Shown here piece after piece: positions 37,122 to 56,677 of a DNA stretch of 64,000 nt (position 1 is its first letter; each line of letters opens with the position of its first letter). The stretch spans positions 310,289 to 374,288 of the forward strand of contig NZ_LMRZ01000001.1 of the NCBI RefSeq assembly GCF_001428305.1, in the 5' to 3' direction. The translations under genes were made by a program, and so were the position numbers. Source of the DNA: Janibacter sp. Soil728. GTDB lineage: Bacteria > Actinomycetota > Actinomycetes > Actinomycetales > Dermatophilaceae. Under the pieces are notes generated by a model. That model was given only the letters and a program-made list of their open reading frames with translations. It ran no database searches and was not told where the DNA came from.

Positions 37122-38522
37122 ATGAGCCTCGATCAAGGGATGGACACCGGGCGCGTCCGGCAGATCGCGAGCGGGATGGAGTCCCAGGTCGTCCGCCTCG
37201 GTGAGATCGTCGCCGCCGGCACGACCAGTGCCGACGTCCTGAGCGCCAACTGGGACGGCACGGACGGGCAGGAGCTGATCGTGCGCTGGCGCACCCAGGC
37301 CGCCAAGCAGATCGGCGCCGCCAGCGAGCTGCTGCGGGCGACGGCCAAGGAGCTGCGTCGCCAGGCCGACCAGCAGGACGGGGCCTCCGACGGCACCGGC
37401 CCGGGTGGGGGAGGCGGCGGTGGAGGTGGCGGCGGCCAGGGTGGGGGAGGCGGCGGTGGAGGTGGCGGCGGCCAGGGTGGCAGCTCCGGAGGTGGTGGCG
37501 GTGGCGGCCAGGGCGGTGGCCGCGGTCAGGGACAGCCCGGCACGGGCAGTGACGGTCGGTGGCCCGACGGGCTCCCGGGCGGGTACGACATCTTCGGTCG
37601 TGATCCCGGCTCCGTCGGCGTGCGCACCAACCGCGGGGACGACAACACCCAGCACCACTACGACCCGCTCACCGGCAAGACCTGGCAGGAGGCGGAGGAC
37701 GGCAGCTGGCGCAACGGCCAGGACGTCTTCGGCAACGAGACCGTGTCGAGGACCGACACCACCGACCGCGGCGACGGCTGGGAGAGCTCCCACGAGAGCA
37801 CCCGCGGCCAGGCCGGGCGAGGGGAGTGGGGTGACTCGTGGTCGACCGAGCGGTCCTTCGACAACGAGGTCGCCTCCAACACGCAGGAGATCCTCGACAA
37901 CGTCCAGAGCGAGCCGATCGTCGAGCAGGACCTGTGGGACGTCTCGGGGCACGACAGCGTCGCCGAGGCGCGCGCGGGCGATGACCGGACCGGGGCCAGT
38001 GCGGAGTTCCTCTCCTACGACGCCTCGACGGACGGCTCGATGGGCATCGACGCCACCCGCGGTGCCTATGTCGAGGCCAATGCCGAGGCCGGGGCCTACC
38101 TGGGCCGCGCCGAGGCCCACTGGACCGGTGACCACGGCACCACCGCACAGGCCGAGGCCATGGTCGGTGCCGAGGGCCAGGCCAACGCCGGAGCCCAGAT
38201 CGGACCCGCCGGCGCGCAGGTGGGAGCCGGCTTCGAAGCCTTCGCCGGTGGACGGGTCGAGGGCGGCTTCAGCCAGGACCTCGGACCGGCTGACGTCGGT
38301 GCCTCGGGCTCGCTCTCCTACGGCATCGGCGCCCACGCCGACGCCAGCGCCGAGGTGTCCATGGACCGGGTGGGCGTCTCCTTCGACGTCGGAGCGACCC
38401 TCGGGGTCGGCGGCTCCGTGTCCCTGGACGTATCGGTCTCGCCCAAGGAGATCGTCGACGGTCTCGCCGACGTGGGCGAGGCGCTCGCAGATTCCCCGGT
38501 CAACCCAGGCAACTGGTGGTGA
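37122..38522 (+). CDS. WXG100-domain fusion protein, candidate type VII secretion substrate
   Basis: The 466-residue protein begins with a WXG100 domain (1-90, W44-D-G46) that aligns closely with the small WXG100 protein at 56313: QGMDTGRVRQI with DGMDPVRIREV, and ELRRQADQQDGAS with TAVQQADEQKGAS. A Gly-rich linker (about 95-140) follows, then an acidic region and a 160-residue Ala/Gly/Glu-rich domain of repeating short strands (YVEANAEAGAYLGRAEAHW, AQIGPAGAQVGAGFEAFAGGRVEGGF) ending in NPGNWW. No toxin active site is recognised. AGGGAG precedes the ATG. WXG100 fusions of this layout are usually exported by the local ATPase; that is inferred here. Confidence 0.75.
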   Translation: MSLDQGMDTGRVRQIASGMESQVVRLGEIVAAGTTSADVLSANWDGTDGQELIVRWRTQAAKQIGAASELLRATAKELRRQADQQDGASDGTGPGGGGGGGGGGGQGGGGGGGGGGGQGGSSGGGGGGGQGGGRGQGQPGTGSDGRWPDGLPGGYDIFGRDPGSVGVRTNRGDDNTQHHYDPLTGKTWQEAEDGSWRNGQDVFGNETVSRTDTTDRGDGWESSHESTRGQAGRGEWGDSWSTERSFDNEVASNTQEILDNVQSEPIVEQDLWDVSGHDSVAEARAGDDRTGASAEFLSYDASTDGSMGIDATRGAYVEANAEAGAYLGRAEAHWTGDHGTTAQAEAMVGAEGQANAGAQIGPAGAQVGAGFEAFAGGRVEGGFSQDLGPADVGASGSLSYGIGAHADASAEVSMDRVGVSFDVGATLGVGGSVSLDVSVSPKEIVDGLADVGEALADSPVNPGNWW

Positions 38523-38595
38523 CCCCCCTTCGACCCGGGATGGCAGGCTGGGCCCCAGACCACGGCCGCCGCCCCCGAACCCACAGGAGCGCAGC

Positions 38596-39072
38596 ATGAC
38601 CCAGATCAGCTATCCCAGCGAGGTCGTCCCCGGCCCGCCGCCCATCACCCTCGAGATGCCCGAGGGCTGGACGCAGGTCTGGGCCCCCGACACGCTCATC
38701 GCGATCCGCGACGGGGCACAGGGCGTCGACCACTTCCTGGCCAATGTCGTCGTCCGCTTCTACCAGCGGTTGGCTCCCTTCGGGCCGGATGAGATCCACG
38801 CCGAGCTCGGCGAGTACGTCGCCCAGCGCCGCGAGGGGACGCTCGGGGCCCTCAAGCACCAGGAGGTCGGTGGGCGGGAGTTCGTCGGCGCCGACCTGGC
38901 CTTCGTCGACGGGGATGCGGGCACAGTGGGGCAGGTCCACTGGTTCACCGCGCAGAAGAGCAACGACGTCCTGGACGTCGTCCAGATCACTGGTTCCTAT
39001 GCCGGTGCGCGGCGCGAGACGGATTACGGCACGATCGACGGCGTCGTCGACTCCGTTCGCATCAATCCCTGA
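38596..39072 (+). CDS. LpqN/PsbP-Mog1-like small protein without signal peptide, copy 1
   Basis: A 158-residue protein beginning SYPSEVVPGPPPITLEMPEGW and continuing with FLANVVVRFYQR and VGQVHWFTAQ, the strand order of LpqN/LpqT-type proteins (Mog1/PsbP-like fold). Mycobacterial LpqN proteins are lipoproteins, but this one has no signal peptide and should stay in the cytosol. It lies 73 bp after the WXG100-fusion gene and is followed by a paralogue. A role as a cytosolic partner or chaperone of the fusion protein is possible, not shown. Confidence 0.62.
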   Translation: MTQISYPSEVVPGPPPITLEMPEGWTQVWAPDTLIAIRDGAQGVDHFLANVVVRFYQRLAPFGPDEIHAELGEYVAQRREGTLGALKHQEVGGREFVGADLAFVDGDAGTVGQVHWFTAQKSNDVLDVVQITGSYAGARRETDYGTIDGVVDSVRINP

Positions 39073-39085
39073 GAGTGCCCCCCAC

Positions 39086-39559
39086 ATGCCACAGCTGACG
39101 TACCCGAGCGAGACCTTCCCCGGCCCACCGGGCGTGACCATCGACGTCCCCGACACCTGGGGACCGGTACGCGTCGGGGGCACGCTGCTCGCCTGCCGAC
39201 GGATCGCGAGCGACCACGGCTTCGCGCCCAATGTCGTCGTCCGGGGCTTCCAGCGCACGTCGGACTTCACCATGCGGCACGCCCTGGAAGAGCTGCGCGG
39301 ATTCGTCGCCCAGCAGCAGGAGGGCAGTGTCGACGAGCCCTTCGAGCTCGAGCTGGGGGAGATCCCCTTCGTCGGGGTCAATGTCTCGTGGGTGGACCCG
39401 CAGATCGGCACGATCGTTCAGATCCACCTCTTCGCCGGGTCTCGGAGGGGTCGCGTCGTCGACCTGCTCCAGGCCACGGGGTCAGTCGGTGGCACTGATG
39501 CGCAGAGCGCCTACGCCGAAGTTCAACAGGTTCTCCAGACGATCCGGGCCACCACGTGA
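39086..39559 (+). CDS. LpqN/PsbP-Mog1-like small protein without signal peptide, copy 2
   Basis: A 157-residue paralogue of the preceding protein: YPSETFPGPPGVTIDVPDTW aligns with its N-terminus, APNVVVRGFQRT with LANVVVRFYQR, and IVQIHLFAGSRRGRVVDLLQATGS with VGQVHWFTAQKSNDVLDVVQITGS. The two arose by tandem duplication and then diverged. It starts 13 bp after copy 1 and overlaps the PP2C gene by 4 bp, so it belongs to the same operon. Confidence 0.62.
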   Translation: MPQLTYPSETFPGPPGVTIDVPDTWGPVRVGGTLLACRRIASDHGFAPNVVVRGFQRTSDFTMRHALEELRGFVAQQQEGSVDEPFELELGEIPFVGVNVSWVDPQIGTIVQIHLFAGSRRGRVVDLLQATGSVGGTDAQSAYAEVQQVLQTIRATT

Positions 39560-40395
39560 GCGCCGTGACCGGGCACGACGAGCTGCCGGGACTGATGCTG
39601 CGGGTGGGAGCTGCGACCGACACCGGTCGGGTGCGCACCCTCAACGAGGACTCCGCGCTCGCCGAGGGCGGCATCTTCGTCGTCGCCGACGGGATGGGCG
39701 GGCACGCGGCAGGGGAGGTCGCCAGCGGCATCGTCGTGGAGACGATGCGCGACCTCGTCACCCGTGGTGACCTCACCGCTGACGACGTCACGCGCCAGCT
39801 GATCCTGGCCAACCAACGGATCCTCGCGGCGGTCGCTGCCCACCCGGAGAACAAGGGCATGGGGACGACCGCGACCGGTCTGGCCCTCGTCACGGCCGGG
39901 GGCGCGGACCACTGGGCGGTCTTCAACGTCGGTGACTCCCGGGTCTACCGCTCCATCGACGGGACCCTCACCCAGGTGACGGTCGACCACTCCGAGGTCC
40001 AGGAGCTCGTCGAGGCCGGCGTGATCACCTCCGAGGAGGCCCGGGTCCACCCGGCTCGCAATGTCGTGACCCGCTCCCTCGGGACCGACTACGCCTACCA
40101 GTCCGATGTCTGGGTGCTCCCCCCGTACGCGGGGGAGCGATTCGTCATCTGCAGCGACGGCCTGACCAACGAGCTCACCGATGCCCGCCTGCGTGAGATC
40201 CTGCTCCAGCACCCCGAGCCCCAGATCGCGGCCGAAGAACTGGTTCGCGCAGCGGTCGAGGCCGGGGGACGGGACAATGTCACGGTGGTGGTCGTCGATC
40301 TCGACGGCACCGTGGGCGACGACCTGTCGGTGACGAGCCCGCGGGCATCGGGCGAGGACACCGCGCCCCGGGGACAGCTGAGCGACAAGGAGTGA
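39556..40395 (+). CDS. PP2C-family Ser/Thr protein phosphatase (PstP-like)
   Basis: The 279-residue metal-dependent phosphatase shows the family order: RTLNEDS (Asp32), VADGMGGHAAGEVAS (Asp45), GMGTTATGLALV, VFNVGDSRVYR, VICSDGLTNEL and GGRDNVTVVVVDLD, with the metal-binding aspartates present. It lacks the C-terminal membrane segment of mycobacterial PstP and should be cytosolic. It starts at GTG 39556 (ATG-independent, 4-bp overlap) and is expected to reverse phosphorylation by the kinase at 42274, including that of the FHA proteins beside it. Confidence 0.92.
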   Translation: MSAVTGHDELPGLMLRVGAATDTGRVRTLNEDSALAEGGIFVVADGMGGHAAGEVASGIVVETMRDLVTRGDLTADDVTRQLILANQRILAAVAAHPENKGMGTTATGLALVTAGGADHWAVFNVGDSRVYRSIDGTLTQVTVDHSEVQELVEAGVITSEEARVHPARNVVTRSLGTDYAYQSDVWVLPPYAGERFVICSDGLTNELTDARLREILLQHPEPQIAAEELVRAAVEAGGRDNVTVVVVDLDGTVGDDLSVTSPRASGEDTAPRGQLSDKE

Positions 40396-40397
40396 CC

Positions 40398-42266
<1,869 letters not shown>

Positions 42267-42273
42267 TGCCTGA

Positions 42274-43989
42274 GTGAGCAGCGCGATCCCGCCCGATCTC
42301 GAAGGGCTCGACTACGTCCAGCCGTTGGGCTCGGGCGGGTACGCCGACGTCTACCTCTACGAGCAGCAGATGCCTCGGATGAAGGTCGCCGTCAAGGTCC
42401 TCAAGACCGAGGGCCTCACTCCCACCATCCAGCAGCAGTTCATCGACGAGGCCAACACGATGGCCCAGCTGGCGGACCACCCCTACATCGTCCAGGTCTT
42501 CCGCGCCGGGACGAGCCGGGACGGACGTCCCTTCCTCGTGATGAAGTACTACCCGCCGCCCAACCTGGCGCAGCGGGCGCGCACGGCCAGGTTTTCCGTC
42601 GAGGAGGTCCTGCGCACAGGCATCCAGCTCGCGAGCGCCGTCGAGACGGCCCACCGCGCCGGCGTCATCCACCGCGACATCAAACCGGCCAATGTCCTCG
42701 TCAGTCAGTACGGCTCCCCGGGCCTGACGGACTTCGGCATCGCCGGCCGAGGTGGCGCCGCCGAGGAGGTCGACGAGGACCTGGGGGTCTCCGTCCCGTG
42801 GTCTCCACCGGAGGTGCTCTTCGGCCACAGCAATGGCGACGCGCGCGCCGACGTCTATGCGTTGTCGGCCACGTTGTGGCAGCTCCTCGTGGGCCGCTCT
42901 CCCTTCGAGGTGCCCGGCGGCAACAACTCTGCCTTCGAGCTCATGCCGCGGATCCGGTCCACCCCGCCACCGAGCACCGATCGCGCGGACGTGCCCCAGT
43001 CGCTCGAGCGGCTCCTGGCCCAGGCCATGAGCAAGAACCCGCTCGCGCGTCCGGCGAGCGCCATCGAGTTCGCCCGCAGCCTCCAGCAGATCGAGCAGGA
43101 GGAGCGTTTTTCGCGGACCGCGATCGTCGTCCTCGACGAGCTCGGTCACAGCGGGGACTCCGGGGCACTCGGCAACACCAGGGACCGGACCCAGCTGCGA
43201 GCCAGCACCGGGTCGGGATCACGCCCGACGACGAGCATGCCACCGCCCCCGCTGGGTCAGCCCGTCATCGGTGGCCAGCTCAGTGGTGGGCGCGGCATCG
43301 GGCACACGGGGTCCGTGCCGATCGCCGATGGGGTCGTCGCACGCTCGGGCAGGCAACCAGCACCCCCGTCCCAGCTCTCGGGTCCGCGTCCGCCGCAGGC
43401 CTCCGGTCCGCGCCCGCCGCAGGCCTCCAGTCCGCGGCCACCCCAGGCCTCCAGTCCGCGTCCGCCGCAGATGTCCGGTCCGCGGCCGGCCCCGTACTCG
43501 GGCCCACGTCCGCCCCAGGCCTCCGGTCCGCGCAGCCAGGGGAGCGGCCCGGTGCCGACCAAGGCCGCCCCGCGACGGTGGCTCCCGATGGTCGCCGGAG
43601 TGTGCGGGGTCCTGCTGCTCGTCGCCATCGTCGGCACGGCTCTCGCGCTGGGCGGCCGCGGGGGTGGCCCCGGGACCCAGACGCAGACCGACACCTCGCT
43701 CGCCAGCGCACCGACCTTCACGATGACGGTCGACAGCTCCGTGCTCGAGTACACGATCGACTACGCCGGGTACCAGAAGGGCGATCGCTATCTCGTCAAG
43801 GCCGCCCTGTCCAAGGACGTGATCGACAAGGCGACCGCCTACGGCGTCTCTGACATCGACGAGGCGACGGGGAAGGGATCCTTCTCCCAGGAGTTCGGGT
43901 CCGCTCCGCGTCAGTGCGCCAAGGTCCGCGTGCAGCGCGGCGAGGACTACTCGCCGTGGAGCGAGACCATGTGCAAGGACAAGGGCTGA
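42274..43989 (+). CDS. Membrane Ser/Thr protein kinase with proline-rich juxtamembrane repeats
   Basis: The 571-residue kinase has glycine loop GSGGYADVY (residues 19-27), Lys41 in VAVKVL, HRDIKPAN (His133-Asp135) and DFG (Asp153), all present, so it should be active. The activation segment is unusual, reading SVPWSPPEVLF instead of the common GTPxYMSPE. Residues about 360-430 contain at least six repeats of the type SGPRPPQA, then a membrane segment (about 433-460) and an exported domain of about 110 residues. That domain is paralogous to the exported part of the next gene product. It starts at GTG 42274. Confidence 0.93.
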   Translation: MSSAIPPDLEGLDYVQPLGSGGYADVYLYEQQMPRMKVAVKVLKTEGLTPTIQQQFIDEANTMAQLADHPYIVQVFRAGTSRDGRPFLVMKYYPPPNLAQRARTARFSVEEVLRTGIQLASAVETAHRAGVIHRDIKPANVLVSQYGSPGLTDFGIAGRGGAAEEVDEDLGVSVPWSPPEVLFGHSNGDARADVYALSATLWQLLVGRSPFEVPGGNNSAFELMPRIRSTPPPSTDRADVPQSLERLLAQAMSKNPLARPASAIEFARSLQQIEQEERFSRTAIVVLDELGHSGDSGALGNTRDRTQLRASTGSGSRPTTSMPPPPLGQPVIGGQLSGGRGIGHTGSVPIADGVVARSGRQPAPPSQLSGPRPPQASGPRPPQASSPRPPQASSPRPPQMSGPRPAPYSGPRPPQASGPRSQGSGPVPTKAAPRRWLPMVAGVCGVLLLVAIVGTALALGGRGGGPGTQTQTDTSLASAPTFTMTVDSSVLEYTIDYAGYQKGDRYLVKAALSKDVIDKATAYGVSDIDEATGKGSFSQEFGSAPRQCAKVRVQRGEDYSPWSETMCKDKG

Positions 43990-44468
43990 TGTCGACTCGT
44001 CCGCGCACCACCACGCCCCCGCCGCCGCAGCAACCGCGGTCGTCGGGGATCGAGGTGGGTCTGCTGCCCCTGATCGCCGGCATCGTCGGGGTACTGCTCG
44101 TCTGCGGCGTCATCGGGGGAGTCCTGTGGGCCACCCGCGACGGCGCCGAGGAGCCGGTGGCGACGCAGACCGAGGCGACCCAGCCCGGTGGAGCCGTGGC
44201 GGGGGCCCCTGATCTGCGGGTTCGGCTCGATGGTGAGACCCTCGTCTTCACCTTCGACTACACGGGACTGCAGGAGGGCGACTACTTCCGTATCCGCACC
44301 GGTGGCGACCCCGACGCGGTGACCGGGACGCCGGTCCGCGTCGATGGCACGGAGTTCAGGCTCGGTGTGGCCCCGGGCGTCCAGCAGTGCGGCACGGTCC
44401 AGGTCGTGCGGGGAGCGCAGCGCTCTGCCTGGTCACAAGTTCAGTGCGAGACGGTGAGGAAATCATGA
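43989..44468 (+). CDS. Single-pass membrane protein paralogous to the kinase ectodomain
   Basis: The 159-residue protein has a Pro-rich N-terminus, one membrane segment (about 23-48) and an exported domain. The domain matches the kinase's: VFTFDYTGLQEGDYFRIRT with EYTIDYAGYQKGDRYLVKA, and QCGTVQVVRGAQRSAWSQVQC with QCAKVRVQRGEDYSPWSETMC, keeping both Cys. It has lost the kinase part. Start ATG 43989 overlaps the kinase stop by one base. It could be a decoy, co-receptor or dimer partner for the kinase. No database family is recognised. Confidence 0.7.
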   Translation: MSTRPRTTTPPPPQQPRSSGIEVGLLPLIAGIVGVLLVCGVIGGVLWATRDGAEEPVATQTEATQPGGAVAGAPDLRVRLDGETLVFTFDYTGLQEGDYFRIRTGGDPDAVTGTPVRVDGTEFRLGVAPGVQQCGTVQVVRGAQRSAWSQVQCETVRKS

Positions 44469-45181
44469 GCGACAGCGTGGTGACGGTCGATTTTTGCGGA
44501 GAGCTGCACACAGCACCCCGTGACGGGACCCTGACGATCGGGCGTGAGGGCGATGTCGAGATCGACGACAACCCCTTCCTCCACCGGCACTTCCTCCAGG
44601 TCACGCACGAAGGGGGCTGGTGGTGGCTGACCAACATCGGCACCACGCTCACTGCGACCGTTGCGGACAAGAAGGGACTCTTCCAGGCCTGGCTGAGCCC
44701 CGGCGCCCGCATCCCGCTCGCCTTCGAACGCATCACCGTGTGGTTCACCGCAGGACCGACGACCTATGACTTCGACGTCCTCGTGGACAACCCGAGCTTC
44801 ATGAGCATCGACAACGATGTCCTCCTGCCGCAGGAGGGTGGGGAGACGACCGTGGGGCGGGTCTCCCTGACGCCCGACCAGAAGCTGCTCGTCGTCGCGC
44901 TGTGCGAGGACTTCCTGCGGCGGGACGGCGCCGGACAGGGCACGATCCCGAGCTCCGCAGCGGCTGCTCACCGCCTGGGGTGGAAGGTCACGAAGTTCAA
45001 CCGCAAGCTCGACAATGTCTGCCAGAAGCTGGCTGACGCCGGCATCCGAGGCCTCCACGGCGGGCCCGGCAAGCTCGCGAGCAACCGCAAGTCGCGGTTG
45101 GTCGAGCACGCCCTGTCGACGCGGATGGTGACACTCGACGACCTGGCGCTCCTCGAGGACCCGTCGGCGGCGGAGGACTGA
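44465..45181 (+). CDS. FHA-domain protein with C-terminal winged-helix-like region
   Basis: A 238-residue cytosolic protein. Residues about 5-110 follow an FHA pattern (LTIGREGDVEIDDNPFLHRHFLQV, WWLTNIGT). Residues about 135-235 look helical with a likely DNA-binding fold: LTPDQKLLVVALCEDFLRR, SSAAAAHRLGWKVTKFNRKLDNVCQKLADAGIRGL, which is reminiscent of a helix-turn-helix with a wing. If so it would be a phosphorylation-responsive regulator of this locus. The FHA part is moderately clear; the HTH assignment is inference. It overlaps the previous gene by ATGA. Confidence 0.72.
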   Translation: MSDSVVTVDFCGELHTAPRDGTLTIGREGDVEIDDNPFLHRHFLQVTHEGGWWWLTNIGTTLTATVADKKGLFQAWLSPGARIPLAFERITVWFTAGPTTYDFDVLVDNPSFMSIDNDVLLPQEGGETTVGRVSLTPDQKLLVVALCEDFLRRDGAGQGTIPSSAAAAHRLGWKVTKFNRKLDNVCQKLADAGIRGLHGGPGKLASNRKSRLVEHALSTRMVTLDDLALLEDPSAAED

Positions 45182-45188
45182 CCGGGGG

Positions 45189-46571: not shown

Positions 46572-46584
46572 GGAAGCAGGAACG

Positions 46585-47553
46585 ATGAGCGTCTCCCAGG
46601 AGCAGGCCGGCTGGTTCAGTCATGCCTTCCAGCAGATGGTCGGCAACATCGACCAGGTCATCCTCGGCAAGCAGCACGTGGTGCGGCTGGCCCTGACCTG
46701 CCTGCTCTCCGAGGGGCACCTGCTCCTCGAGGACTACCCCGGCACCGGCAAGACCCAGCTGGCCCGGGCCATCGCGGCGACGGTCCAGGGCAGCAGCAGC
46801 CGGATCCAGTTCACCCCTGACCTGCTCCCGAGCGATGTCACGGGAGTGACGATCTACGACCAGCAGAGCAAGAAGTTCGACTTCCACCGCGGACCGATCT
46901 TCGCGTCGATCGTCCTCGCGGACGAGATCAACCGCGCCTCTCCCAAGACCCAGTCGGCGCTGCTCGAGGTCATGGAGGAGGGGCGGGTGACGGTGGACGG
47001 CACCACCCACGACGTCGGCTCGCCCTTCATGGTCGTCGCGACGCAGAACCCCATCGAGCAAGCCGGCACCTACCGCCTGCCCGAGGCCCAGCTCGACCGC
47101 TTCCTCATGAAGACCTCGCTGGGCTACCCCGATCACGAGGCGACCGTCGCCGTGCTCGCCGACTCGGCCCGACGGGATCGGACCCAGGGGCTGCGACCGG
47201 TCGTCACGTCCAAGGTCGTCACCGACATGGCCAAGCTCGCGGACCAGGTGCACGTCGACGCGGCGATCCTCGCCTACGTCTCCCGCATCGCCGAGGAGAG
47301 CCGCCGCCACCGGGATGTCCGGCTCGGACTGTCCGTGCGCGGATGCCTCGCCTTCGTGCGGTGTGCCAAGACCTGGGCCGCCGGCCAGAGCCGCACGCAC
47401 GTCGTCCCCGACGACATCAAGATGCTCGCCGAGCCGGTGATGAGCCACCGGTTGCTGCTGTCCGCGGAGGCGGAGTTCGCCGGAGTGCAGGTCACCGACG
47501 TCATCGGCCGGATCCTCGGCCAGGTCGCTCCTCCGACCGAGCGCGTGGCCTGA
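46585..47553 (+). CDS. MoxR family AAA+ ATPase
   Basis: A 322-residue chaperone-type ATPase with Walker A YPGTGKTQLA, Walker B ADEINRASPKTQSALLEVMEE, and sensor TQNPIEQAGTYRLPEAQLDRF, all intact. MoxR ATPases assist maturation of partner proteins, often of the DUF58 type, as encoded just downstream. It starts at ATG 46585 with AGGAA upstream and ends 7 bp before the DUF58 gene. Confidence 0.92.
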   Translation: MSVSQEQAGWFSHAFQQMVGNIDQVILGKQHVVRLALTCLLSEGHLLLEDYPGTGKTQLARAIAATVQGSSSRIQFTPDLLPSDVTGVTIYDQQSKKFDFHRGPIFASIVLADEINRASPKTQSALLEVMEEGRVTVDGTTHDVGSPFMVVATQNPIEQAGTYRLPEAQLDRFLMKTSLGYPDHEATVAVLADSARRDRTQGLRPVVTSKVVTDMAKLADQVHVDAAILAYVSRIAEESRRHRDVRLGLSVRGCLAFVRCAKTWAAGQSRTHVVPDDIKMLAEPVMSHRLLLSAEAEFAGVQVTDVIGRILGQVAPPTERVA

Positions 47554-47560
47554 CCCTGCG

Positions 47561-48979: not shown

Positions 48980-51408
48980 GCGGGGAGCGGAGCGCGGGCA
49001 GCACCCTGATCGGGGCCCCGAAGCCGGGGATGATCAAGCCCCAGCTCACGACCGGGGAAAAGGTCCGTGCCACGCTCGGGCGGATGCGGCCCGGGCGAGG
49101 GACCTGGGTCGACACCTTCTTCGCGATGGCCGTCGTCACCTGTGCGCTCGTCGGTCTGCGGACCGTCCTCTTCGGCTGGCAGTGGTGGCAGGCGGTCGCG
49201 GTGGGCGTCCTCCTCGGCCTGGTCGTGGGCCACGTCCAGGGCACCTACCGATGGCCACTCATCGCGATCACCGCGCTCGGGGCGCTCCTCTACTTCCTGC
49301 TCGGCGGTCCGCTGGCGGTCCGGGACGACCTGAGATGGGGGATCCTCCCCACCGGTCAGACCTTCAAGGACCTCGCCGCCGGGCCCACGAGCGGCTGGAT
49401 GGACCTGGTGACCCTCGTCCCGCCCGTCGACGCCCGGGGGCGCTACCTGGCGTTCGCCTTCTTCCTGGCTCTCGTCGGGACCACGATCACCTACGCGACC
49501 GCGCGCGTGACGAGGTCGCGGCTGCGACTGGTGCTTCCCCCCTTCGTCCTGCTGGGGGTGACCATCGCCCTCGGGACGACGCAGCCCGCTGCCCGGTGGG
49601 TGCACGGACTCCTCCTCGGGGTCCTGCTCATCGGGTGGCTGTCGGTACGGGACCACCTCGACCCCGAGGTCGGCATCGCCCGTCCGGGTGCGCGTCGCCC
49701 CGCGCTGTCCCGGGTCATCTCGGGGATCGTGATCCTCGGCCTCGCGACCCTCGTGGGGGCCGTCATCGGGCCGCGCCTGCCGGGGCTGGGGTCGCCGAGC
49801 GACCGTCAGGTCGTGCGGACCGGTGTCGTGCCCGGTCACGACGCCACCATGCTGGCCTCGCCGCTCTCGCAGTACCGGGAGTTCACCAGGGCGAGTCCCT
49901 CCGGCATGTACGACCGCCAGCTCCTGCAGGTGGACGGGGTGCCGGCAACCACGCCGATGCGACTGGCCACCCTCGACACGTGGGACGGTTCGACCTGGGG
50001 CATCGCCGGCCGAGGTGATGCTCGGGCCGACGCGGGTCGGGCCTTCCAGCAGTTCGGTCGCCGGGTCGGGGTCCTCGCCAGCGGGTCGACCACGCAGGTC
50101 CGGGTCAGCGTCCCGGACGGCGGGTACCGCAGCCCCTGGATCCTCACGACCGGTCGCGTCGAGGGCATCGAGTTCCTCGGGTCGGCGCAGGAACGCCTGC
50201 GGGACCAGGCCTGGCTCAATCTCAGCACCAACACCGTGCTCGTCCCCCCGGGGATCGCGCCGGGTGACGTCTACGAGGTCCGCACGGAGCTGCCGCCGAC
50301 CGGTGCCGGCGCGCTGCCCGAGGAGCTGCGGGTCGCTGCGGGCAGCATGCCGATCAGCGGGGACGCGAGCTTCGTCGACGGACGGATCCAGGCGTGGAAG
50401 GGGGACGCGACCGACCGTTGGGGTCAGTTCCGCGCCATCGCCACGACGATGCGTGAGGAGGGGACCTACACCGACGGGACGCCGGCGACGAGCAAGAAGC
50501 CCCTGGCCGAGGCCGAGCGCTCGGGGCGGGCACGCTCGAGCCTGCTGTACCCGGCCGGGCACGGGCTCGGCCGACTGGACGACTTCCTCAACTCCGACCC
50601 GCTCGCCGGCAACGACGAGCAGTACGCCGCGACACTGGCGCTCATCGGCAACCGACTGGGCATCCCCACCCGGGTCGTCGTCGGTGCCACCGCCACCGAT
50701 GACGGGGTGGTGCGGGGCCGAGACATCCACGCCTGGGTCGAGGTCCGGCAGACCGATGGTCAGTGGTTCCAGGTCCTGCCGCAGACCTTCATACCGGACG
50801 CCGTCGAGCAGGCCACCCCGGCCGGCGCCGCCCCGACCGCGTGGACGGCGCCCGAGGTCACGCCACCCCCGCCGCCCCCACCGCCGCCGGTCGCGCCACC
50901 CGAGCCGGTCGTCGACTGGTCCTCCCCGTCGACCTGGCCGCTGTGGGCCCAGCTGCTCGGCGTCTTCGGTGGTGTGCCGCTGCTCCTCCTGCTGCTCACG
51001 CCCGTCGTCACCGCCACCCGGCGAGCCATCCGGCTGCGACGCGGCAGTCCCGATCGTCGGGTGGGTCGGGCGTGGAACGACCTCGTCGAGGAGGCCGGGG
51101 TGCTCGGCCGCCGACTGCCTGCCGGGGCCACCCGGCTCGAGCAGGCCCGTGCCCTCGGGCAGTCCAGCGGTGCCGTGCCCGCTGCGGTGAGGGCCGACGG
51201 CCTGATCTTCGGTGAGGCGCCACCCCGACCGGCCGACGTCAGCGCGTGGCAGGCCGAGCTACGGCGCGTGCGTCGCCGGATGCGGCGAGAGACTCCCTTC
51301 GTCACCCGGCTGCGGGCGACCTTCGACCCACGACCGCTGTTCTCCCACCAGGAGGACATCGGACTGCACGACTCCACCACCGCCCCCACCCGGAAGGCGC
51401 TTCGATGA
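48976..51408 (+). CDS. Transglutaminase-like membrane protein lacking the catalytic cysteine
   Basis: The 810-residue protein has about six N-terminal membrane segments (residues about 45-260), an extracytoplasmic region with a transglutaminase-like core, a proline run, one C-terminal membrane segment (about 655-680) and a cytoplasmic tail, as in TgpA-like proteins. In the core, NDEQYAATLALIGNRLGIPTRVVVG puts Asp547 where active enzymes carry Cys, while the His (HAWVEV, His585) is kept. It may therefore be a binding or structural protein. It overlaps the genes on both sides by ATGA and belongs to the MoxR-DUF58-transglutaminase set. Confidence 0.85.
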   Translation: MSGERSAGSTLIGAPKPGMIKPQLTTGEKVRATLGRMRPGRGTWVDTFFAMAVVTCALVGLRTVLFGWQWWQAVAVGVLLGLVVGHVQGTYRWPLIAITALGALLYFLLGGPLAVRDDLRWGILPTGQTFKDLAAGPTSGWMDLVTLVPPVDARGRYLAFAFFLALVGTTITYATARVTRSRLRLVLPPFVLLGVTIALGTTQPAARWVHGLLLGVLLIGWLSVRDHLDPEVGIARPGARRPALSRVISGIVILGLATLVGAVIGPRLPGLGSPSDRQVVRTGVVPGHDATMLASPLSQYREFTRASPSGMYDRQLLQVDGVPATTPMRLATLDTWDGSTWGIAGRGDARADAGRAFQQFGRRVGVLASGSTTQVRVSVPDGGYRSPWILTTGRVEGIEFLGSAQERLRDQAWLNLSTNTVLVPPGIAPGDVYEVRTELPPTGAGALPEELRVAAGSMPISGDASFVDGRIQAWKGDATDRWGQFRAIATTMREEGTYTDGTPATSKKPLAEAERSGRARSSLLYPAGHGLGRLDDFLNSDPLAGNDEQYAATLALIGNRLGIPTRVVVGATATDDGVVRGRDIHAWVEVRQTDGQWFQVLPQTFIPDAVEQATPAGAAPTAWTAPEVTPPPPPPPPPVAPPEPVVDWSSPSTWPLWAQLLGVFGGVPLLLLLLTPVVTATRRAIRLRRGSPDRRVGRAWNDLVEEAGVLGRRLPAGATRLEQARALGQSSGAVPAAVRADGLIFGEAPPRPADVSAWQAELRRVRRRMRRETPFVTRLRATFDPRPLFSHQEDIGLHDSTTAPTRKALR

Positions 51409-54400
51409 AGCTGATGTTCACCCTCCGCGGGTCCGACAACGAGGACACCGACCTCGTCGCGACCGTCGACGGCCGCACCACCGTCGGGGACCTGGCCGAG
51501 CACCTCGTGCTCGCGGACCCGCGGCGGCAGCGCGCCGGAAGCAGCTACGAGAGGCCCGACCTGGGTCAGACGACCTTGGCGCTGGTCAACGAGAACTTCC
51601 GCGCGGTCGACCCCCACACGACGGTGCAGGAGTCGGGGCTGCGCTCGGGTGCGCACGTGAGCGTCACCCGACGTTCCTCCGGCTACCAGGACACCGAGGC
51701 ACCGATCGCGGTCGCCACGGTCGTCGCCGGACCGGACGCCGGACGCGAGTACGCCCTGCAACGCGGGACCTCCCACGTCGGGCGCGGCCGGGACTGCGAG
51801 GTGCAGATCAACGACGCCTCCGTCTCCCGCAAGCACGCCAAGCTCCTCGTCGCCGACGTCGTGGAGGTCACCGACCTCGGGTCGTCCAACGGCGTGGTCG
51901 TCGGGGACGAGCACGTGGACCGGGCCATCCTGCGCGAGGGCGAGGCCTTCACGATCGGGGACACGACCTTCGAGATCTCGACGCGCACCGCCGCGGCCGG
52001 AGTGACCACGACCGAGTCGGGCGACGTGGCCTTCACGCGCTCGCCGCGGATCTCCCCCGTCTACCAGGGCCTGCAGTTCGAGGTCCCGGACCTGCCTGAG
52101 CGCGGCAAGCCGCAGCGCATCCCCCTCGCGATGATGATCGTGCCCGTCTTCATGGGCGCCACGCTCTTCGCCATCACCCGCTCGCGCTTCACGATCATGT
52201 TCATGCTCATGATGCCGATGATGATGCTGGCCAACGCCTGGGAGTCCAAGCGGCGCGTGCGGCTCGACTTCGAGGAGGCCATGGTCGACTTCCGCGAAGA
52301 CGTCGGCTACCTCGTCGAGGACATCGAGACCGAGCTGGACCGCGAGCACGACACCCGCCGCCAGGAGCACCCGGCAGTGGCCGAGCTCGGGCAGGCCGTC
52401 GCCGCCCACCACCCGCTCATGTGGACCCGTCGTCCGGGAGAGCCCGGCTACCTCGAGTACCGACTCGGCCTGGGGGTTCGGCCCAGCCGCAGCGAGATCA
52501 AGCTGCCCAAGATGGGACGCAGCCGGGCCGAGGCCTGGCTCGAGGTGTCCACCCTGATGCAGGGCCTGGGCGTGGTCGCCGACGTCCCGGTCACGGCACA
52601 CCCGCTCCTCGACGGAGCGATCGGTGTCTCGGGCCCGCGTGAGGCGGCGCTCGGGCTCGCTCGCTCGATCATCGTGCAGACGATGTCCGCGCACTCGCCC
52701 GCAGAGGTCGTCCTCTGCGCGCTCGCCTCGACGACATCGGCGCGCGACTGGGACTGGTTGAAGTGGGTCCCGCACGCCACGTCCCCGCAGAGCCCCTTCG
52801 ACGTGCAGCAGACGGCCAGCTCGAGGCCGGGCTGTGCCGCGATCATGGAGCAGCTCGAGTCGCTCGTCGCGAGCCGGAGCGCCAAGGACGGTCCCGGCGC
52901 AGGCGGGCCCTCGGTCGTGGTGCTCATCGAGAACGACGCCCCCATCGAGCGAGCCCGGCTCGTCCAGCTGGCCGAGGCGGGGTGGAAGGTCGGGGTCGTC
53001 GTCGTCTGGGTCTCCCCGGTGACCGAGCAGCTGCCGGCGGCCTGCCGGACCTTCGTCGAGGTCGGGGACGGCGGCCGGTGCCGCGTCGGCTGGGTCGGTC
53101 CGGCACAGCTGGCCGCCGACGTGCAGGCGGACCCCATCCCCCTTCGTGATGCGGTGACGGTCGCTCGTCAGCTCGCGCCCATCACCGACTCCAGCGCGCT
53201 GGCCAGAGACGACTCGGACATCCCACGGTCGGTGTCCTACCTCGCCCTCGTGGGCACGGAGATCGCCCACTCGGAGACGGCCGTCATCGAGAGGTGGAAC
53301 GAAAATCGCTCGATCCTCACCGGGCCGCACGCGCCACCCACGCCCAACCGCAAGCCGGGCTCGCTGCGTGCCGTCATCGGGCAGTCCGCGATGGGCACGC
53401 ACAGCGTGGACCTGCGTACCGACGGCCCGCACGCTCTCGTCGGTGGCACCACGGGCGCCGGCAAGTCGGAGCTGCTCCAGGCCTGGATCCTCGGCATGGC
53501 CACGGCCAACAGCCCACAGCGAGTGACCTTCCTCCTCGTGGACTACAAAGGCGGTTCGGCCTTCCGTGACTGCGTCCAGCTGCCGCACACCGTCGGCATG
53601 GTCACGGACCTCTCGCCGCACCTGGTGCGCCGGGCGCTCGCCTCGCTGTCGGCGGAGCTGCACTACCGCGAGCACCTGCTCGCCCGGTACAAGGCCAAGG
53701 ACCTCATCGAGCTCGAGCGACGCGGTGAGGTCGAGGCGCCACCGAGCCTGATCATCATCGTCGACGAGTTCGCCGCCCTGGTGCAGGAGGTTCCCGACTT
53801 CGTCGATGGCGTCGTCAACATCGCCCAGCGAGGCCGTTCCCTCGGTATTCACCTCATCCTCGCGACCCAGCGGCCGGCCGGTGTCATCAAGGACAACCTG
53901 CGCGCCAACACCAACCTGCGGATGGCCTTGCGCATGGCGGACACGGACGACTCGACCGATGTCCTCGGGACCCCGGACGCGGCCTACTTCGATCCGGCCC
54001 TGCCCGGCCGCGCGCTGGCCAAGTCCGGCCCCGGGCGGCTCGTCCCCTTCCAGACGGGGTATGCCGGAGGGTGGACGAGCAACACGCCGCCCCCGCCGGA
54101 CATGCTCGTCTCGACCCTCGCCTTCGGCGCGCCCGTGGCGTGGGAGCTGCCGGCGAAGCCGCAGGGTGACGAGGAGGCCGACCTGGGTCCGACGGACATC
54201 CAGCGGGTCGTCGACACCGTCGAACGCGCCCGGGTCGAGGCCCAGCTGCCGCTTCCCCGAAAGCCCTGGTTGTCGGAGCTCGCCGAGGTCTACGAGCTGG
54301 CCAAGCTGCCGACGGAGCGTCGTGACGACGAGCTGGTCATCGGCATCGCCGACAACCCGGAGCGGCAGAGCCAGCCGGCGATCTCCTTCCGTCCCGACGT

Positions 54401-55808
54401 GGAGGGCAACCTCGCCGTCTTCGGGGCCTCGGGCGCCGGCAAGAGCTCCTTCCTGCGGACCATCGCGATCGCCGCGGGGTTCACCGTGCGTGGTGGTCCG
54501 TGCCATGTCTACGGCCTGGACTTCGGGAACCGGGGTCTGGCCATGCTCGAGGACCTGCCGCACGTCGGAAGCATCATCTCGGGTCAGGACGAAGAACGCG
54601 TCAAGCGCTTGATCACGATGCTCCGCGAGACCATCGACGAGCGGGCTATCCGGTACTCCAAGGCCAATGCCACGACGATCACCCAGTACCGCAAGCTCGC
54701 CGGTCGGACCGACGAGCCGCGCATCTTCGTGCTCGTCGACGGGTTGAGCGCCTTCCGCAACGCCTATGAGTCCTCGGGTGCCCTGATGAAGTGGCTGGAC
54801 GCCTTCACCGCCCTCCTGTCCGACGGGCGGCCGGTCGGGGTGCACTTCGTGCTGTCGGTCGACGCGCGCAACGGTCTCCCGGTGTCGATGGGCTCGTCGG
54901 TCCAGTCCCGCTTCGTCCTGCGCATGGCGACCGAGGACGACTACTCCTTCCTCGGGGTGCCGGGTGACGTGCTCACCCCGGACTCGCCTCCGGGGCGTGG
55001 TCTGTTCAAGAAGCGCGAGGTGCAGGTCGCTGTCCTCGGTGGGACGCCGGACGCGTCAGAGCAGTCGCGCATGGTCCGTGGGTTCGCCGACACGATGGCC
55101 AAGTCCGGAGCGCGCCCGGCAGCGCCGGTCGCCTCCCTGCCGGAGGTCGTACCCGCATCGAGCATGCCCGCACAGGTCGGCGGTCTCCCGGTGCTGGCGA
55201 TGAGCTCGGACGACCTGGCCCCCGTCACCATCGACCCGCACGGTGGTTTCGTCGTCACCGGACCTCCCGGCAGCGGCCGGACCACGGTGCTCATCCAGCT
55301 GGTGCAGGCCGTGAAGCTCTGGGACCCGGCGGCGCAGCTGCACCTGGTCACTCTGCGGCGCAACTCGCAGATGCTCTCGATGCCGCAGCTCGCGTCCGCG
55401 GTCACCCGCGAGGAGGAGATCAAGGAGCTGTGCGTGCTCCTCAAGGAGCGGGCGCTCGACGAGAGCTCGCCGCTGCAGGTGCTCGTCATCGAAAAGCTGG
55501 ACGACCTGAACGCGCCGCCGTACCAGATGCCCCTGCAGGACGCGATCAAGCCGCTCATCGACAACGACCACTTCGTCGTGGGTGAGGCCGACCCGAGTGC
55601 GCTCACGACGGGCATGGGACTGCCCGGCCTGGTCAAGGGAGGGCGTTCGGGGATCGTGCTGGCGCCAGACGGTTCCGAGTCGTCGATGATCTTCAAGACG
55701 ACCTTCCCGCCCCTCGCACGTGTCGTCATGCCTGAAGGGCGAGGGGTACTCGTGCGTCGAGGCAGGGCGCAGATCGTCCAGACGGCGCTTCCAGAGATGC
55801 CACGGTGA
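51405..55808 (+). CDS. Type VII secretion FtsK/SpoIIIE ATPase (EssC/EccC-like) with N-terminal FHA domain
   Basis: The 1,467-residue motor has a ubiquitin-like N-terminus (about 1-85), an FHA domain (about 105-195: SHVGRGRDCEVQI, SVSRKHAKL, LGSSNGV), two membrane segments (about 240-285) and three FtsK/SpoIIIE modules. Module 1 is intact: Walker A GGTTGAGKS (Lys687) and IIIVDEF. Module 2 has GASGAGKS (Lys1013) but LVDGLSA in place of Asp-Glu. Module 3 has GPPGSGRTT, with Arg1292 replacing the Lys, and VIEKLDD. This asymmetry is typical of EccC/EssC. Domain order resembles EssC of Firmicutes more than split EccCa/Cb. It should drive export of WXG100 proteins. Confidence 0.92.
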   Translation: MKLMFTLRGSDNEDTDLVATVDGRTTVGDLAEHLVLADPRRQRAGSSYERPDLGQTTLALVNENFRAVDPHTTVQESGLRSGAHVSVTRRSSGYQDTEAPIAVATVVAGPDAGREYALQRGTSHVGRGRDCEVQINDASVSRKHAKLLVADVVEVTDLGSSNGVVVGDEHVDRAILREGEAFTIGDTTFEISTRTAAAGVTTTESGDVAFTRSPRISPVYQGLQFEVPDLPERGKPQRIPLAMMIVPVFMGATLFAITRSRFTIMFMLMMPMMMLANAWESKRRVRLDFEEAMVDFREDVGYLVEDIETELDREHDTRRQEHPAVAELGQAVAAHHPLMWTRRPGEPGYLEYRLGLGVRPSRSEIKLPKMGRSRAEAWLEVSTLMQGLGVVADVPVTAHPLLDGAIGVSGPREAALGLARSIIVQTMSAHSPAEVVLCALASTTSARDWDWLKWVPHATSPQSPFDVQQTASSRPGCAAIMEQLESLVASRSAKDGPGAGGPSVVVLIENDAPIERARLVQLAEAGWKVGVVVVWVSPVTEQLPAACRTFVEVGDGGRCRVGWVGPAQLAADVQADPIPLRDAVTVARQLAPITDSSALARDDSDIPRSVSYLALVGTEIAHSETAVIERWNENRSILTGPHAPPTPNRKPGSLRAVIGQSAMGTHSVDLRTDGPHALVGGTTGAGKSELLQAWILGMATANSPQRVTFLLVDYKGGSAFRDCVQLPHTVGMVTDLSPHLVRRALASLSAELHYREHLLARYKAKDLIELERRGEVEAPPSLIIIVDEFAALVQEVPDFVDGVVNIAQRGRSLGIHLILATQRPAGVIKDNLRANTNLRMALRMADTDDSTDVLGTPDAAYFDPALPGRALAKSGPGRLVPFQTGYAGGWTSNTPPPPDMLVSTLAFGAPVAWELPAKPQGDEEADLGPTDIQRVVDTVERARVEAQLPLPRKPWLSELAEVYELAKLPTERRDDELVIGIADNPERQSQPAISFRPDVEGNLAVFGASGAGKSSFLRTIAIAAGFTVRGGPCHVYGLDFGNRGLAMLEDLPHVGSIISGQDEERVKRLITMLRETIDERAIRYSKANATTITQYRKLAGRTDEPRIFVLVDGLSAFRNAYESSGALMKWLDAFTALLSDGRPVGVHFVLSVDARNGLPVSMGSSVQSRFVLRMATEDDYSFLGVPGDVLTPDSPPGRGLFKKREVQVAVLGGTPDASEQSRMVRGFADTMAKSGARPAAPVASLPEVVPASSMPAQVGGLPVLAMSSDDLAPVTIDPHGGFVVTGPPGSGRTTVLIQLVQAVKLWDPAAQLHLVTLRRNSQMLSMPQLASAVTREEEIKELCVLLKERALDESSPLQVLVIEKLDDLNAPPYQMPLQDAIKPLIDNDHFVVGEADPSALTTGMGLPGLVKGGRSGIVLAPDGSESSMIFKTTFPPLARVVMPEGRGVLVRRGRAQIVQTALPEMPR

Positions 55809-55986
55809 CGGTGAGCAGCCTTGTGCGCCAACGGTATTGCGCATGCACATCGGATTCATCGATGTCTGGGGAGTTCTCCCCATGTACCTCGCTGCGCACC
55901 TTCTCTAGTGTTGACATCAGTCGGGCAGGGAGATGGCCCGAAGACACACACCACGTATCAGCACCTATCGACAGCAGGAGTAGATC
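55809..55986. promoter_or_regulatory. Leader region of the first small WXG100 gene
   Basis: This 178-bp gap has a perfect inverted repeat GGGGAG-TT-CTCCCC (55868-55881) and, downstream, TTGACA at 55911-55916 without a good -10. The gap suggests that the two abundant small WXG100 proteins have their own promoter, separate from the ATPase operon. Confidence 0.4.
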
Positions 55987-56259
55987 ATGTCTTTCGTCGG
56001 AATGAACCTCGACATCGTCAAGGGCGAGCTGCCCAAGTGGCAGAACCTCGCGCAGGACCTCGAGACCGTCATCACCAGCGTCGACACGCAGGTGCAGGAG
56101 GCCAACGACGCGTGGAACGGTCCCGACTCGGACAAGTTCGTCGCCGAGTGGCAGGGCCAGCACCGTGCACAGCTCGTGGGGGCCAAGACCCTGGTCGAGC
56201 ACCTGACCGCGACGTTGGGGCACGAGATCACCGAGCAGGGGCGTGTGTCCGGCGCCTGA
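55987..56259 (+). CDS. WXG100 family protein (EsxA/EsxB-like), 1
   Basis: A 90-residue helical protein with W43-N-G45 in the mid-hairpin position, the hallmark of ESAT-6/WXG100 family substrates of type VII secretion. It has AGGAG before the ATG. No C-terminal YxxxD/E export signal is obvious in the last 15 residues, which may be supplied by its partner. It lies 178 bp after the EssC-like ATPase and 53 bp before the second WXG100 gene; the two likely form a heterodimer. Confidence 0.93.
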   Translation: MSFVGMNLDIVKGELPKWQNLAQDLETVITSVDTQVQEANDAWNGPDSDKFVAEWQGQHRAQLVGAKTLVEHLTATLGHEITEQGRVSGA

Positions 56260-56312
56260 TCCGGCCCGCATCACGCTCACCCCCCCACACACACTTTTGA
56301 AGGAGAACTGAC

Positions 56313-56600
56313 ATGGCACTGACTGACGGAATGGACCCGGTCCGCATCCGAGAGGTTGCGCGGCAGCTGACGCAGCAGTCCGGCAAGATCGAAGAGGCCA
56401 TCACCAACGGCACCACGCAGGCGGCGACGCTCGTGGACAACTGGCACGGCAACGACTCCGAGCAGTTCGCGACCTCGTGGCAGGACGCGATCAAGGCCCT
56501 CCAGAGCGCCAAGGACCTGATGACCGACTACGCCCGGACCGCGGTCCAGCAGGCCGACGAGCAGAAGGGCGCCTCGGGCGGCGGCAACAGCGGCGACTGA
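56313..56600 (+). CDS. WXG100 family protein (EsxA/EsxB-like), 2
   Basis: A 95-residue helical protein with W44-H-G46 and, in its C-terminal part, the segment YARTAVQQADEQ (residues about 74-85), followed by a Gly/Ser tail. YARTA is close to the YxxxD/E export motif but lacks the acidic residue. It is closely related to the first 90 residues of the fusion protein at 37122, which has the same W-x-G position. GAAGGAG precedes the ATG. Likely partner of the 90-residue WXG100 protein and co-exported with it. Confidence 0.93.
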   Translation: MALTDGMDPVRIREVARQLTQQSGKIEEAITNGTTQAATLVDNWHGNDSEQFATSWQDAIKALQSAKDLMTDYARTAVQQADEQKGASGGGNSGD

Positions 56601-56620
56601 GCGTCCGCGCCAGCCCGCCC

Positions 56621-56662: not shown

Positions 56663-56677
56663 GTCGTGCTCGCAGGC

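What the first reader, a model, noticed from the sequence alone, without database searches (positions are those of the whole stretch)
37122..56600. Type VII-like secretion locus fused to a complete Ser/Thr phosphorylation module
Seen directly: 15 same-strand genes, mostly overlapping or within about 75 bp, that include an EssC/EccC-type ATPase, three WXG100 proteins, an intact kinase, a PP2C phosphatase, two FHA proteins plus an FHA domain in the ATPase, and a MoxR/DUF58/transglutaminase-like set. Known: ESX systems need EccB, EccD, EccE and MycP, none of which is present. Inference: this is a non-ESX type VII system in which FHA domains, including that of the motor, read phosphorylation by the local kinase to gate export. 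Such coupling in one operon is not part of the standard ESX or Ess description.
Basis: partly seen in the sequence, partly recalled or inferred. Interest (0 to 1): 0.78.

Follow-up and report, generated by a model that had tools for sequence, protein, structure and literature searches.

The report
Kinase-coupled type VII secretion-like locus
In a Janibacter-like actinobacterium, a predicted protein-export motor of the type VII kind sits in one gene cluster with a complete protein-phosphorylation switch, and comparison across relatives suggests that the motor's phosphate-reading domain tends to decay when the kinase is lost.

Summary
In detail: 15 same-strand genes (37122-56600) with an EssC-like motor, three WXG100-type proteins, an intact kinase, PP2C, two further FHA proteins and MoxR/DUF58/transglutaminase genes. 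It is a joint of two modules. [quoted passage not shown] Module 2 is a non-ESX motor with WXG100 proteins, related to the published T7SSd. Of 297 sampled genomes of the order, 87 have the motor clade, 124 the module marker g8, 73 both, 60 of these within 25 kb. New here: a probable ubiquitin-like domain at the motor's N-terminus, perhaps the subunit reported missing from T7SSd; the motor's FHA keeps its phosphothreonine residues in 90 of 91 motors from kinase-bearing genomes but 2 of 9 from kinase-lacking ones, one of which has a pseudokinase in the kinase's place; and an anonymous, probably Bifidobacterium, genome has PFNA- and T7SSd-type loci about 13 kb apart. The coupling idea was in print in 2024. 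Secretion and phosphorylation are untested; the co-loss rests on few independent events (sign test p 0.25).

The parts
37122..38522 (+). g1, 466 aa: WXG100-like N-terminal domain, Gly-rich linker, long tail of unknown type; candidate exported substrate
   Evidence: 36% identity to g15, E 9e-18; no Pfam hit for the whole protein; 6 of the 7 loci labelled g1 have a g2-type gene next to it
38596..39072 (+). g2, 158 aa: LpqN/DcrB-like, no hydrophobic segment in a simple scan; candidate partner of g1
   Evidence: A6 family: Lpp-LpqN in 5 of 10 members (best 5.2e-14), DcrB in 3 of 10 (best 1.1e-6); PDB 3lyd 5.4e-32; scan
39086..39559 (+). g3, 157 aa: paralogue of g2
   Evidence: 38% identity, E 7e-34
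39556..40395 (+). g4, PP2C phosphatase
   Evidence: PP2C_2 4.9e-16
40392..42266 (+). g5, 624 aa: zinc-ribbon-like motif (by eye) and C-terminal FHA with intact phosphothreonine residues
   Evidence: FHA 5.3e-9; R/S/H/N in 36 of 37 rows, window counted twice
42274..43989 (+). g6, Ser/Thr kinase with one membrane segment (about 439-457) and a small outer domain
   Evidence: Pkinase 1e-37; K, HRD, DFG intact; hydrophobic segment
43989..44468 (+). g7, 159 aa: membrane segment and outer domain like those of g6, without kinase
   Evidence: 30% identity to g6 residues 437-568, E 1e-15
44465..45181 (+). g8, non-canonical FHA plus conserved helical C-terminus, possibly helix-turn-helix; best marker of the module
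   Evidence: AlphaFold pLDDT 87.9; Foldseek FHA hits, best 1.9e-5; weak HTH_8 in 2 of 23 members; alignment A1
45189..46571 (+). g9, 460 aa: short form of the long Ig/fn3 envelope protein (compare FN3 of PFNA, TsdI)
   Evidence: no Pfam hit itself; three of three long relatives scanned carry fn3 and Big_9 domains; lengths; hydrophobic segment 26-44
46585..47553 (+). g10, MoxR-type AAA+ ATPase
   Evidence: AAA_3 7.4e-63
47561..48979 (+). g11, DUF58 membrane protein
   Evidence: DUF58 7.8e-10; hydrophobic segments
48976..51408 (+). g12, TgpA-type membrane transglutaminase
   Evidence: TgpA_N 5e-13, Transglut_core 7.9e-12
51405..55808 (+). g13, motor, 1467 aa: probable ubiquitin-like domain (about 1-89), FHA (about 102-193), membrane region, FtsK-type ATPase domains
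55987..56259 (+). g14, WXG100-type protein, 90 aa
   Evidence: WXG100 6e-4, 20.5 bits, below the cut-off of 27.3
56313..56600 (+). g15, WXG100 protein, 95 aa
   Evidence: WXG100 29.7 bits, above cut-off

Best explanation
A type VII-like export locus made of two joined modules. The motor (g13) with its WXG100 proteins (g14, g15; g1 as likely cargo, g2/g3 as likely cargo partners) is a non-ESX system related to T7SSd. A ubiquitin-like part, probably the counterpart of EsaB/YukD, is fused to the motor's N-terminus. It is joined to a PFNA-type envelope-signalling operon: membrane kinase (g6), PP2C (g4), FHA adaptor (g5), FHA and possibly DNA-binding protein (g8), reduced Ig/fn3-type envelope protein (g9), MoxR-DUF58-transglutaminase. 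Proposed working (inferred): the kinase senses an envelope state and phosphorylates threonines on itself or a neighbour; the motor's FHA docks on them, so that the motor assembles or runs at kinase sites; PP2C resets it. Shown here: gene content, intact catalytic and pocket residues, linkage, and joint decay of kinase and motor FHA. Inferred: phosphorylation, docking, export, cargo.
For: Co-occurrence in 297 genomes of the order: 73 with both motor clade and g8, 60 of them within 25 kb, odds ratio 16, Fisher p 7.5e-22, not corrected for kinship. Kinase motifs intact in 39 of 40. Motor FHA residues R/S/H/N intact in 90 of 91 motors from kinase-bearing genomes and 2 of 9 from kinase-lacking ones: residues lost in G358, G421 and G549; N to H in G382; domain missing while the ubiquitin-like domain stays in G406 and G604 (read directly), and by HMM span and the N-terminal letters in G605. 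In G549 a degenerate pseudokinase sits in the kinase's place (hhalign probability 94.8%; plain HMM only 13.9 bits; ORF). Ubiquitin-like fold: predicted secondary structure; best PDB profile matches are a redesigned ubiquitin (E 0.011) and SAMP1 (0.07); 2 of 23 members match YukD weakly, best 0.0089; the G038 motor N-terminus matches YukD at 9.7e-5 and our profile at 92%. PFNA-type module without this motor in the locus and in the probable Bifidobacterium G375.
Against: The co-loss has few independent events: 4 independent contrasts on well-supported branches, on average 2.6 in the expected direction, 0 opposite, sign test p 0.25. G362 and G441 lack the kinase but keep the pocket; G329 has the kinase and reads RSHH. 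The module exists without the motor clade (51 of 124), and one of two sampled genomes of the window's own genus group, G464, has neither. For the ubiquitin-like reading: the window's own domain matches no Pfam family at E 1, no PDB match is significant by itself, direct profile comparison with EccD/YukD sequences failed (0.4%, with a poor alignment), and none of the 50 Foldseek rows shown is ubiquitin-like. Nothing here shows export or phosphorylation.
Confidence: 0.6

Rival explanations
1. Two separate systems that are neighbours: an envelope-maintenance operon (kinase, PP2C, FHA, MoxR-DUF58-transglutaminase) beside a type VII-like export unit, with shared expression but no direct control of the motor.
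For: Module marker without motor clade in 51 of 124 genomes, motor without g8 in 14 of 87, both but not within 25 kb in 13 of 73; gene order and distance vary; in G375 the two loci are separate and the T7SSd-type locus has its own kinase.
Against: 60 of 73 lie close together; the motor FHA pocket follows the kinase (90 of 91 against 2 of 9).
Confidence: 0.25
2. The motor FHA binds the kinase domain structurally, as in T7SSb, where EssC FHA meets the EssB pseudokinase; phosphorylation adds little.
For: G549 keeps a pseudokinase beside a motor FHA that lacks the residues, the same pairing that PMC11217815 reports for T7SSb (section read).
Against: Catalytic and pThr residues are kept almost everywhere the kinase is present.
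Confidence: 0.12
3. The WXG100 proteins and motor are decayed or serve a non-secretory role; the locus is mainly a cell-envelope signalling operon.
For: No YukC/EssB hit in the genome (control rang in B. subtilis); no EccB, EccD or YukC hit among the locus proteins scanned; g9 is short here.
Against: The motor spans its full length at 68-91% identity (best segment) in the nine named Janibacter records; WXG100 genes follow the motor in many relatives.
Confidence: 0.08

Closest known systems
T7SSd (Garrett et al. 2024, PMC11217815; Methods, Results and Discussion sections read in part)
   Same: Actinomycetota; FHA-bearing EssC-like ATPase, WXG100 protein, membrane Ser/Thr kinase, large Ig-like envelope protein; phosphorylation control suggested there
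   Different: Here also PP2C, two FHA proteins, MoxR, DUF58, transglutaminase; the window-based kinase model scores the PFNA kinase of G375 at 307 bits and its T7SSd-type kinase at 117; motor in another clade than G375's; probable ubiquitin-like domain in the motor, where the paper found no ubiquitin-like protein with T7SSd
PFNA operon of bifidobacteria (PMC8430577 and PMC6803598, passages only)
   Same: pkb2-fn3-aaa-duf58-tgm, in the same order as g6-g9-g10-g11-g12, plus prpC and fha genes in some species
   Different: Described as a host-signal operon; 'type VII', 'WXG' and 'FtsK' have 0 occurrences in both main texts; here joined to a motor and WXG100 genes, and g9 lacks the fn3 part
T7SSe (PMC11217815, section read)
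   Same: Kinase, PPM phosphatase, FHA protein, FHA motor, two WXG100 proteins
   Different: Bacillota; separate ubiquitin-like TseB; no MoxR, DUF58 or transglutaminase in the paper's main text
T7SSb (EssB pseudokinase and EssC FHA)
   Same: Membrane (pseudo)kinase paired with a motor that bears FHA domains
   Different: EssB is inactive and the EssC FHA domains lack the pThr site (PMC11217815); here both are intact; no YukC/EssB hit in the genome
ESX / T7SSa
   Same: Distantly related EccC-type ATPase, WXG100 proteins
   Different: No ESX partner among the locus proteins scanned; motor apart from three EccC rows in the tree
T6SS threonine-phosphorylation pathway (as told in PMC11217815)
   Same: Kinase and FHA protein switch a secretion machine
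   Different: Unrelated machine; here the FHA is part of the motor

Membership tests
ESX / T7SSa | EccB, EccD, EccE, MycP with EccC | tested here: not met
   None among the locus proteins by Pfam; YukD model 0 hits in the genome, control rang; genome-wide EccB search inconclusive, its control was silent; EccE and MycP not searched genome-wide
T7SSb / Ess | EssB/YukC pseudokinase | tested here: not met
   PF10140 0 hits in the genome; control rang in B. subtilis
T7SSb / Ess | Motor FHA without pThr-binding residues | tested here: not met
   Residues R/S/H/N intact in the window motor
T7SSd | FHA-bearing EssC-like ATPase with pThr motif, in Actinomycetota | tested here: met
T7SSd | WXG100 protein (TsdA) | tested here: met
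   g15 over the cut-off
T7SSd | Membrane Ser/Thr kinase (TsdD) | tested here: inconclusive
   A membrane kinase is present, but it is closer to the PFNA-type kinase than to the T7SSd-type kinase of G375
T7SSd | Large Ig-like TsdI | tested here: inconclusive
   Only a 460-aa short form here; long relatives have Ig/fn3 domains, but their profile did not find G375's own TsdI-like protein
T7SSd | TsdH, single membrane helix | tested here: inconclusive
   g7 has one hydrophobic segment but resembles the kinase's outer part
T7SSd | Motor in the TsdC clade | not testable with these tools
   No TsdC sequence of the paper at hand; G375 (T7SSd-like gene content) falls in another clade
PFNA operon | pkb2-fn3-aaa-duf58-tgm in this order | tested here: met
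   g6, g9, g10, g11, g12 in this order, with g7 and g8 between g6 and g9 and with g9 reduced; models built from the window and relatives find the same five genes in order in G375
PFNA operon | FN3 protein with fibronectin type III domains | tested here: not met
   No Pfam domain in g9; fn3 present in 3 of 3 long relatives scanned and in G375's protein

The most novel reading that the evidence does not exclude
The PFNA operon, studied in bifidobacteria as a host-signal system, is the regulatory and envelope half of a family of actinobacterial type VII secretion systems in which a live kinase and a phospho-reading motor do what the dead EssB-EssC pair does in Bacillota; G549, with a pseudokinase and a dead motor FHA, would be an independent slide into the EssB-like state. 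The subunit reported missing from T7SSd (TsxB) is the motor's own N-terminus.
Probability: 0.35. Interest if true: 0.82.

Novelty: new variant of a known kind. Interest (0 to 1): 0.62.

Why it matters
The 2024 survey of type VII subtypes suggests phosphorylation control without a test. This locus family gives a genetic handle: the motor's phosphothreonine pocket is kept with the kinase and mostly gone without it. It also joins two literatures (PFNA operon and type VII secretion) that no paper in the searched library links by these terms, and offers an answer to the reported absence of a ubiquitin-like subunit in T7SSd. If right, work on the bifidobacterial FN3 protein would have to consider a secretion context.

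Tried and rejected
Rejected: that this is ESX (no ESX partners in the locus; motor apart from EccC). Rejected: that the kinase module always travels with the motor. Rejected: that the window kinase is simply TsdD. Led nowhere: direct hhalign of the ubiquitin-like region against EccD/YukD sequences (0.4%; that alignment had no conserved columns); Rfam (0 hits at gathering score); promoter and terminator patterns at 36950-37200 and 55750-56950 (0 found), which may not suit a high-G+C actinobacterium; a first regular-expression count of g5 pockets (18 of 34) was too strict and was replaced by the alignment count. The g2 and g3 profiles were spoiled by an out-of-frame window ORF (one search shows a false 1183-bit row), so I use them only for clear neighbours. 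The class-wide list served to choose loci, not for a tally.

Rows dropped before counts; of 130 genomes with a g8 match at E 1e-10, six weak ones (57-65 bits) were left out, giving 124; the motor clade was cut at 620 bits, by my choice, out of 129 genomes with a match at E 1e-130; of 106 motors with a usable segment, six were left out because they had no kinase call or lie outside the clade: G170, G078, G146, G183, G375, and G590 (a call takes at most 80 handles). Of these G183 reads RSHH and G375 SLHK. G570 (kinase present) had no motor N-terminus at hand. and one search count the window protein twice (as query and as row). Kinase status is by profile score: the best match in kinase-bearing genomes was at least 383 bits; in six kinase-lacking genomes it was at most 184; in the other three (G382, G604, G605) nothing was listed at E 1e-58, so diverged copies there are not excluded. 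G375 had 288. The tree used full-length rows, N-terminus included, and has long branches.


Full report
What is there. The window lies in a 3.64-Mb genome in 10 contigs. Its motor is 91% identical (best segment) to that of Janibacter limosus, 68-91% across nine named Janibacter records, and 57-61% to those of Terrabacter, Terracoccus, Intrasporangium and Marihabitans. Of the two sampled genomes of the same genus group, G570 has the motor and g8, G464 has neither. Fifteen + strand genes run from 37122 to 56600, between a poly(A)-polymerase-family gene and a P450 gene. The finer anatomy: g1 has a WXG100-like head (36% identity to g15), a glycine-rich linker and a long tail; g2 and g3 are paralogues of the LpqN/DcrB type; g7 resembles the membrane and outer part of the kinase g6; g8 has an FHA fold whose pocket keeps the arginine but, by my reading of the alignment, not the serine, followed by a strongly conserved helical part with weak helix-turn-helix matches (HTH_8 in 2 of 23 members).

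The motor. g13 is 1467 aa. Residues about 1-89 are predicted as strands and a helix in the order of a beta-grasp fold and 102-193 as FHA (FHA matches). For the first part, the profile of 23 relatives finds a redesigned ubiquitin (E 0.011), the ubiquitin-like SAMP1 (0.07) and TouB (0.22) among its 16 PDB matches up to E 10, none significant alone and some unrelated; 2 of 23 members match YukD weakly (best 0.0089), the window's own not at all. The corresponding piece of a distant motor, G038, matches YukD at 9.7e-5, below the curated cut-off, and our profile at 92% probability (the YukD model found it by itself). A direct comparison with EccD/YukD sequences failed. No YukD-family hit is found in the window genome. 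I take the domain as ubiquitin-like with about 80% confidence. The motor of G375, whose locus has gene content like that published for T7SSd, begins with a stretch that matches ours weakly (36%). If it holds, the ubiquitin-like component that Garrett et al. could not find for T7SSd (PMC11217815, section read) is fused to the ATPase.

Two modules. In relatives, PP2C-FHA-kinase-FHA(g8) and g9-MoxR-DUF58-transglutaminase stand with the motor in varying order. In an even draw of 297 genomes of the order, the motor clade (at least 620 bits) is in 87, g8 in 124, both in 73; of the 73, 60 have them within 25 kb, 5 far apart on one contig, 8 on different contigs, some of which are drafts. Twenty g8 loci of 20 kb were then fetched, 19 of the 51 g8-only genomes and G345, which has the motor elsewhere. 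Six of the twenty (G048, G094, G213, G317, G498, G345) show all eight module genes and no motor in the locus; others are partial (G371 shows g8 alone), and G106 and G390 have a more distant motor nearby. So the module is self-standing but is often joined to the motor.

PFNA. The gene order kinase-fn3-MoxR-DUF58-transglutaminase, with PP2C and FHA genes in some species, is that of the PFNA operon of bifidobacteria (PMC8430577, passages). In the Janibacter-type loci g9 has frames of 435-684 codons, while 16 relatives have 1,775-2,333 codons (others are cut by locus ends, and some loci, such as L045, show no g9); three of three long ones scanned carry fn3 and bacterial Ig domains. G375 is an anonymous genome of about 2.1 Mb with the 16S probe site of bifidobacteria (probe recalled from memory; 3 of 21 genomes rang; G312 and G427 of the same genus group did not). 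It holds a PFNA-type operon (L291:243-12692; kinase 307 bits, fn3 protein frame 1833 codons) and, about 13 kb away, a locus of WXG100-like protein, kinase, 1800-codon Ig-like protein and motor (L152), which is the published T7SSd content except that I did not identify TsdH. No paper in the library holds Bifidobacterium, 'type VII secretion' and PFNA together: 73 hold at least two, the listing puts papers with more terms first, and its top rows hold two.

Does the motor read the kinase? Kinase homologues keep the lysine, HRD and DFG motifs in 39 of 40; g5 keeps its pocket in 36 of 37 rows. I scored 100 motors for the four pocket residues and their genomes for the kinase: with kinase, 90 of 91 intact; without, 2 of 9 (Fisher p 1.8e-8 without regard to kinship). 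The cases: G358 (single contig) has no gene between g5 and g8, where relatives such as G230 have the kinase, and reads QAHY; G549 has a pseudokinase there (HRD to HLA, DFG gone, VAVK to VTVR) and reads TDHS; G421 reads LEPG; in G406 and G604 the FHA domain is gone and the ubiquitin-like domain runs on towards the membrane segment, and G605 looks the same; G382 reads RSHH. Against: G362 (single contig) and G441 (draft) keep RSHN without the kinase; G329 has the kinase but reads RSHH. On a tree of the motors made without the ubiquitin-like and FHA parts, the kinase changes 6 times and the pocket 5 times; of 4 independent contrasts on well-supported branches, 2.6 on average go together and none opposite; sign test p 0.25. 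This is suggestive and one-directional, not significant.

Mechanism. Most likely the membrane kinase senses an envelope cue through its outer domain (and g7), phosphorylates local threonines, and the motor's FHA docks there; g5 may act as adaptor; PP2C resets; g8 may feed back on transcription; MoxR-DUF58-transglutaminase may prepare the wall. Only the gene content, residue patterns and their joint decay are shown. g1 with g2/g3 looks like cargo with partner: 6 of the 7 loci labelled g1 have a g2-type gene next to it. That DcrB-type folds serve as effector chaperones in type VI secretion is recalled, not tested.

Novelty. The general idea, kinase and FHA motor in one type VII cluster, was printed in 2024 (PMC11217815; sections read; 0 occurrences of DUF58, transglutaminase, MoxR or PFNA in its main text). 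New here, as far as the searches show: the joint with a PFNA-type operon, the fused ubiquitin-like domain, and the joint decay of kinase and motor FHA, including a pseudokinase state that recalls EssB. The motor clade is apart from three EccC rows and from G375's motor (quick tree, long branches). I file it as a new variant related to T7SSd.

Noticed in passing
G000:C4:397424-401323 (L159/L160): A second, 32% identical EssC-like ATPase in the same genome; none of the kinase/MoxR-module profiles hit in the fetched 36 kb around it.
   Followed up: partly
G000:C6:438525, C4:619328, C4:726404, C6:500383, C4:162449 (L001-L003, L005, L006): Five further WXG100 matches in the genome, four of them in open frames of 314-543 codons, possible other cargo; two are below the cut-off.
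   Followed up: no
L121, L141 (G337): A genome with five kinase copies around one motor in the fetched loci and seven matches genome-wide, perhaps variants with different outer domains.
   Followed up: no
L278:1464-2989 (G604): Two proteins with FHA-like stretches and intact-looking pockets (by eye) directly upstream of a motor that has lost its own FHA.
   Followed up: no
L153:14378-15172 (G549): Degenerate kinase in the place of the active kinase; it ends without an obvious membrane segment (by eye).
   Followed up: yes
window 45189-46571: g9 ends in a Lys/Thr/Ser-rich tail, where relatives continue with Ig/fn3 domains; the stalk seems lost or replaced in Janibacter.
   Followed up: partly
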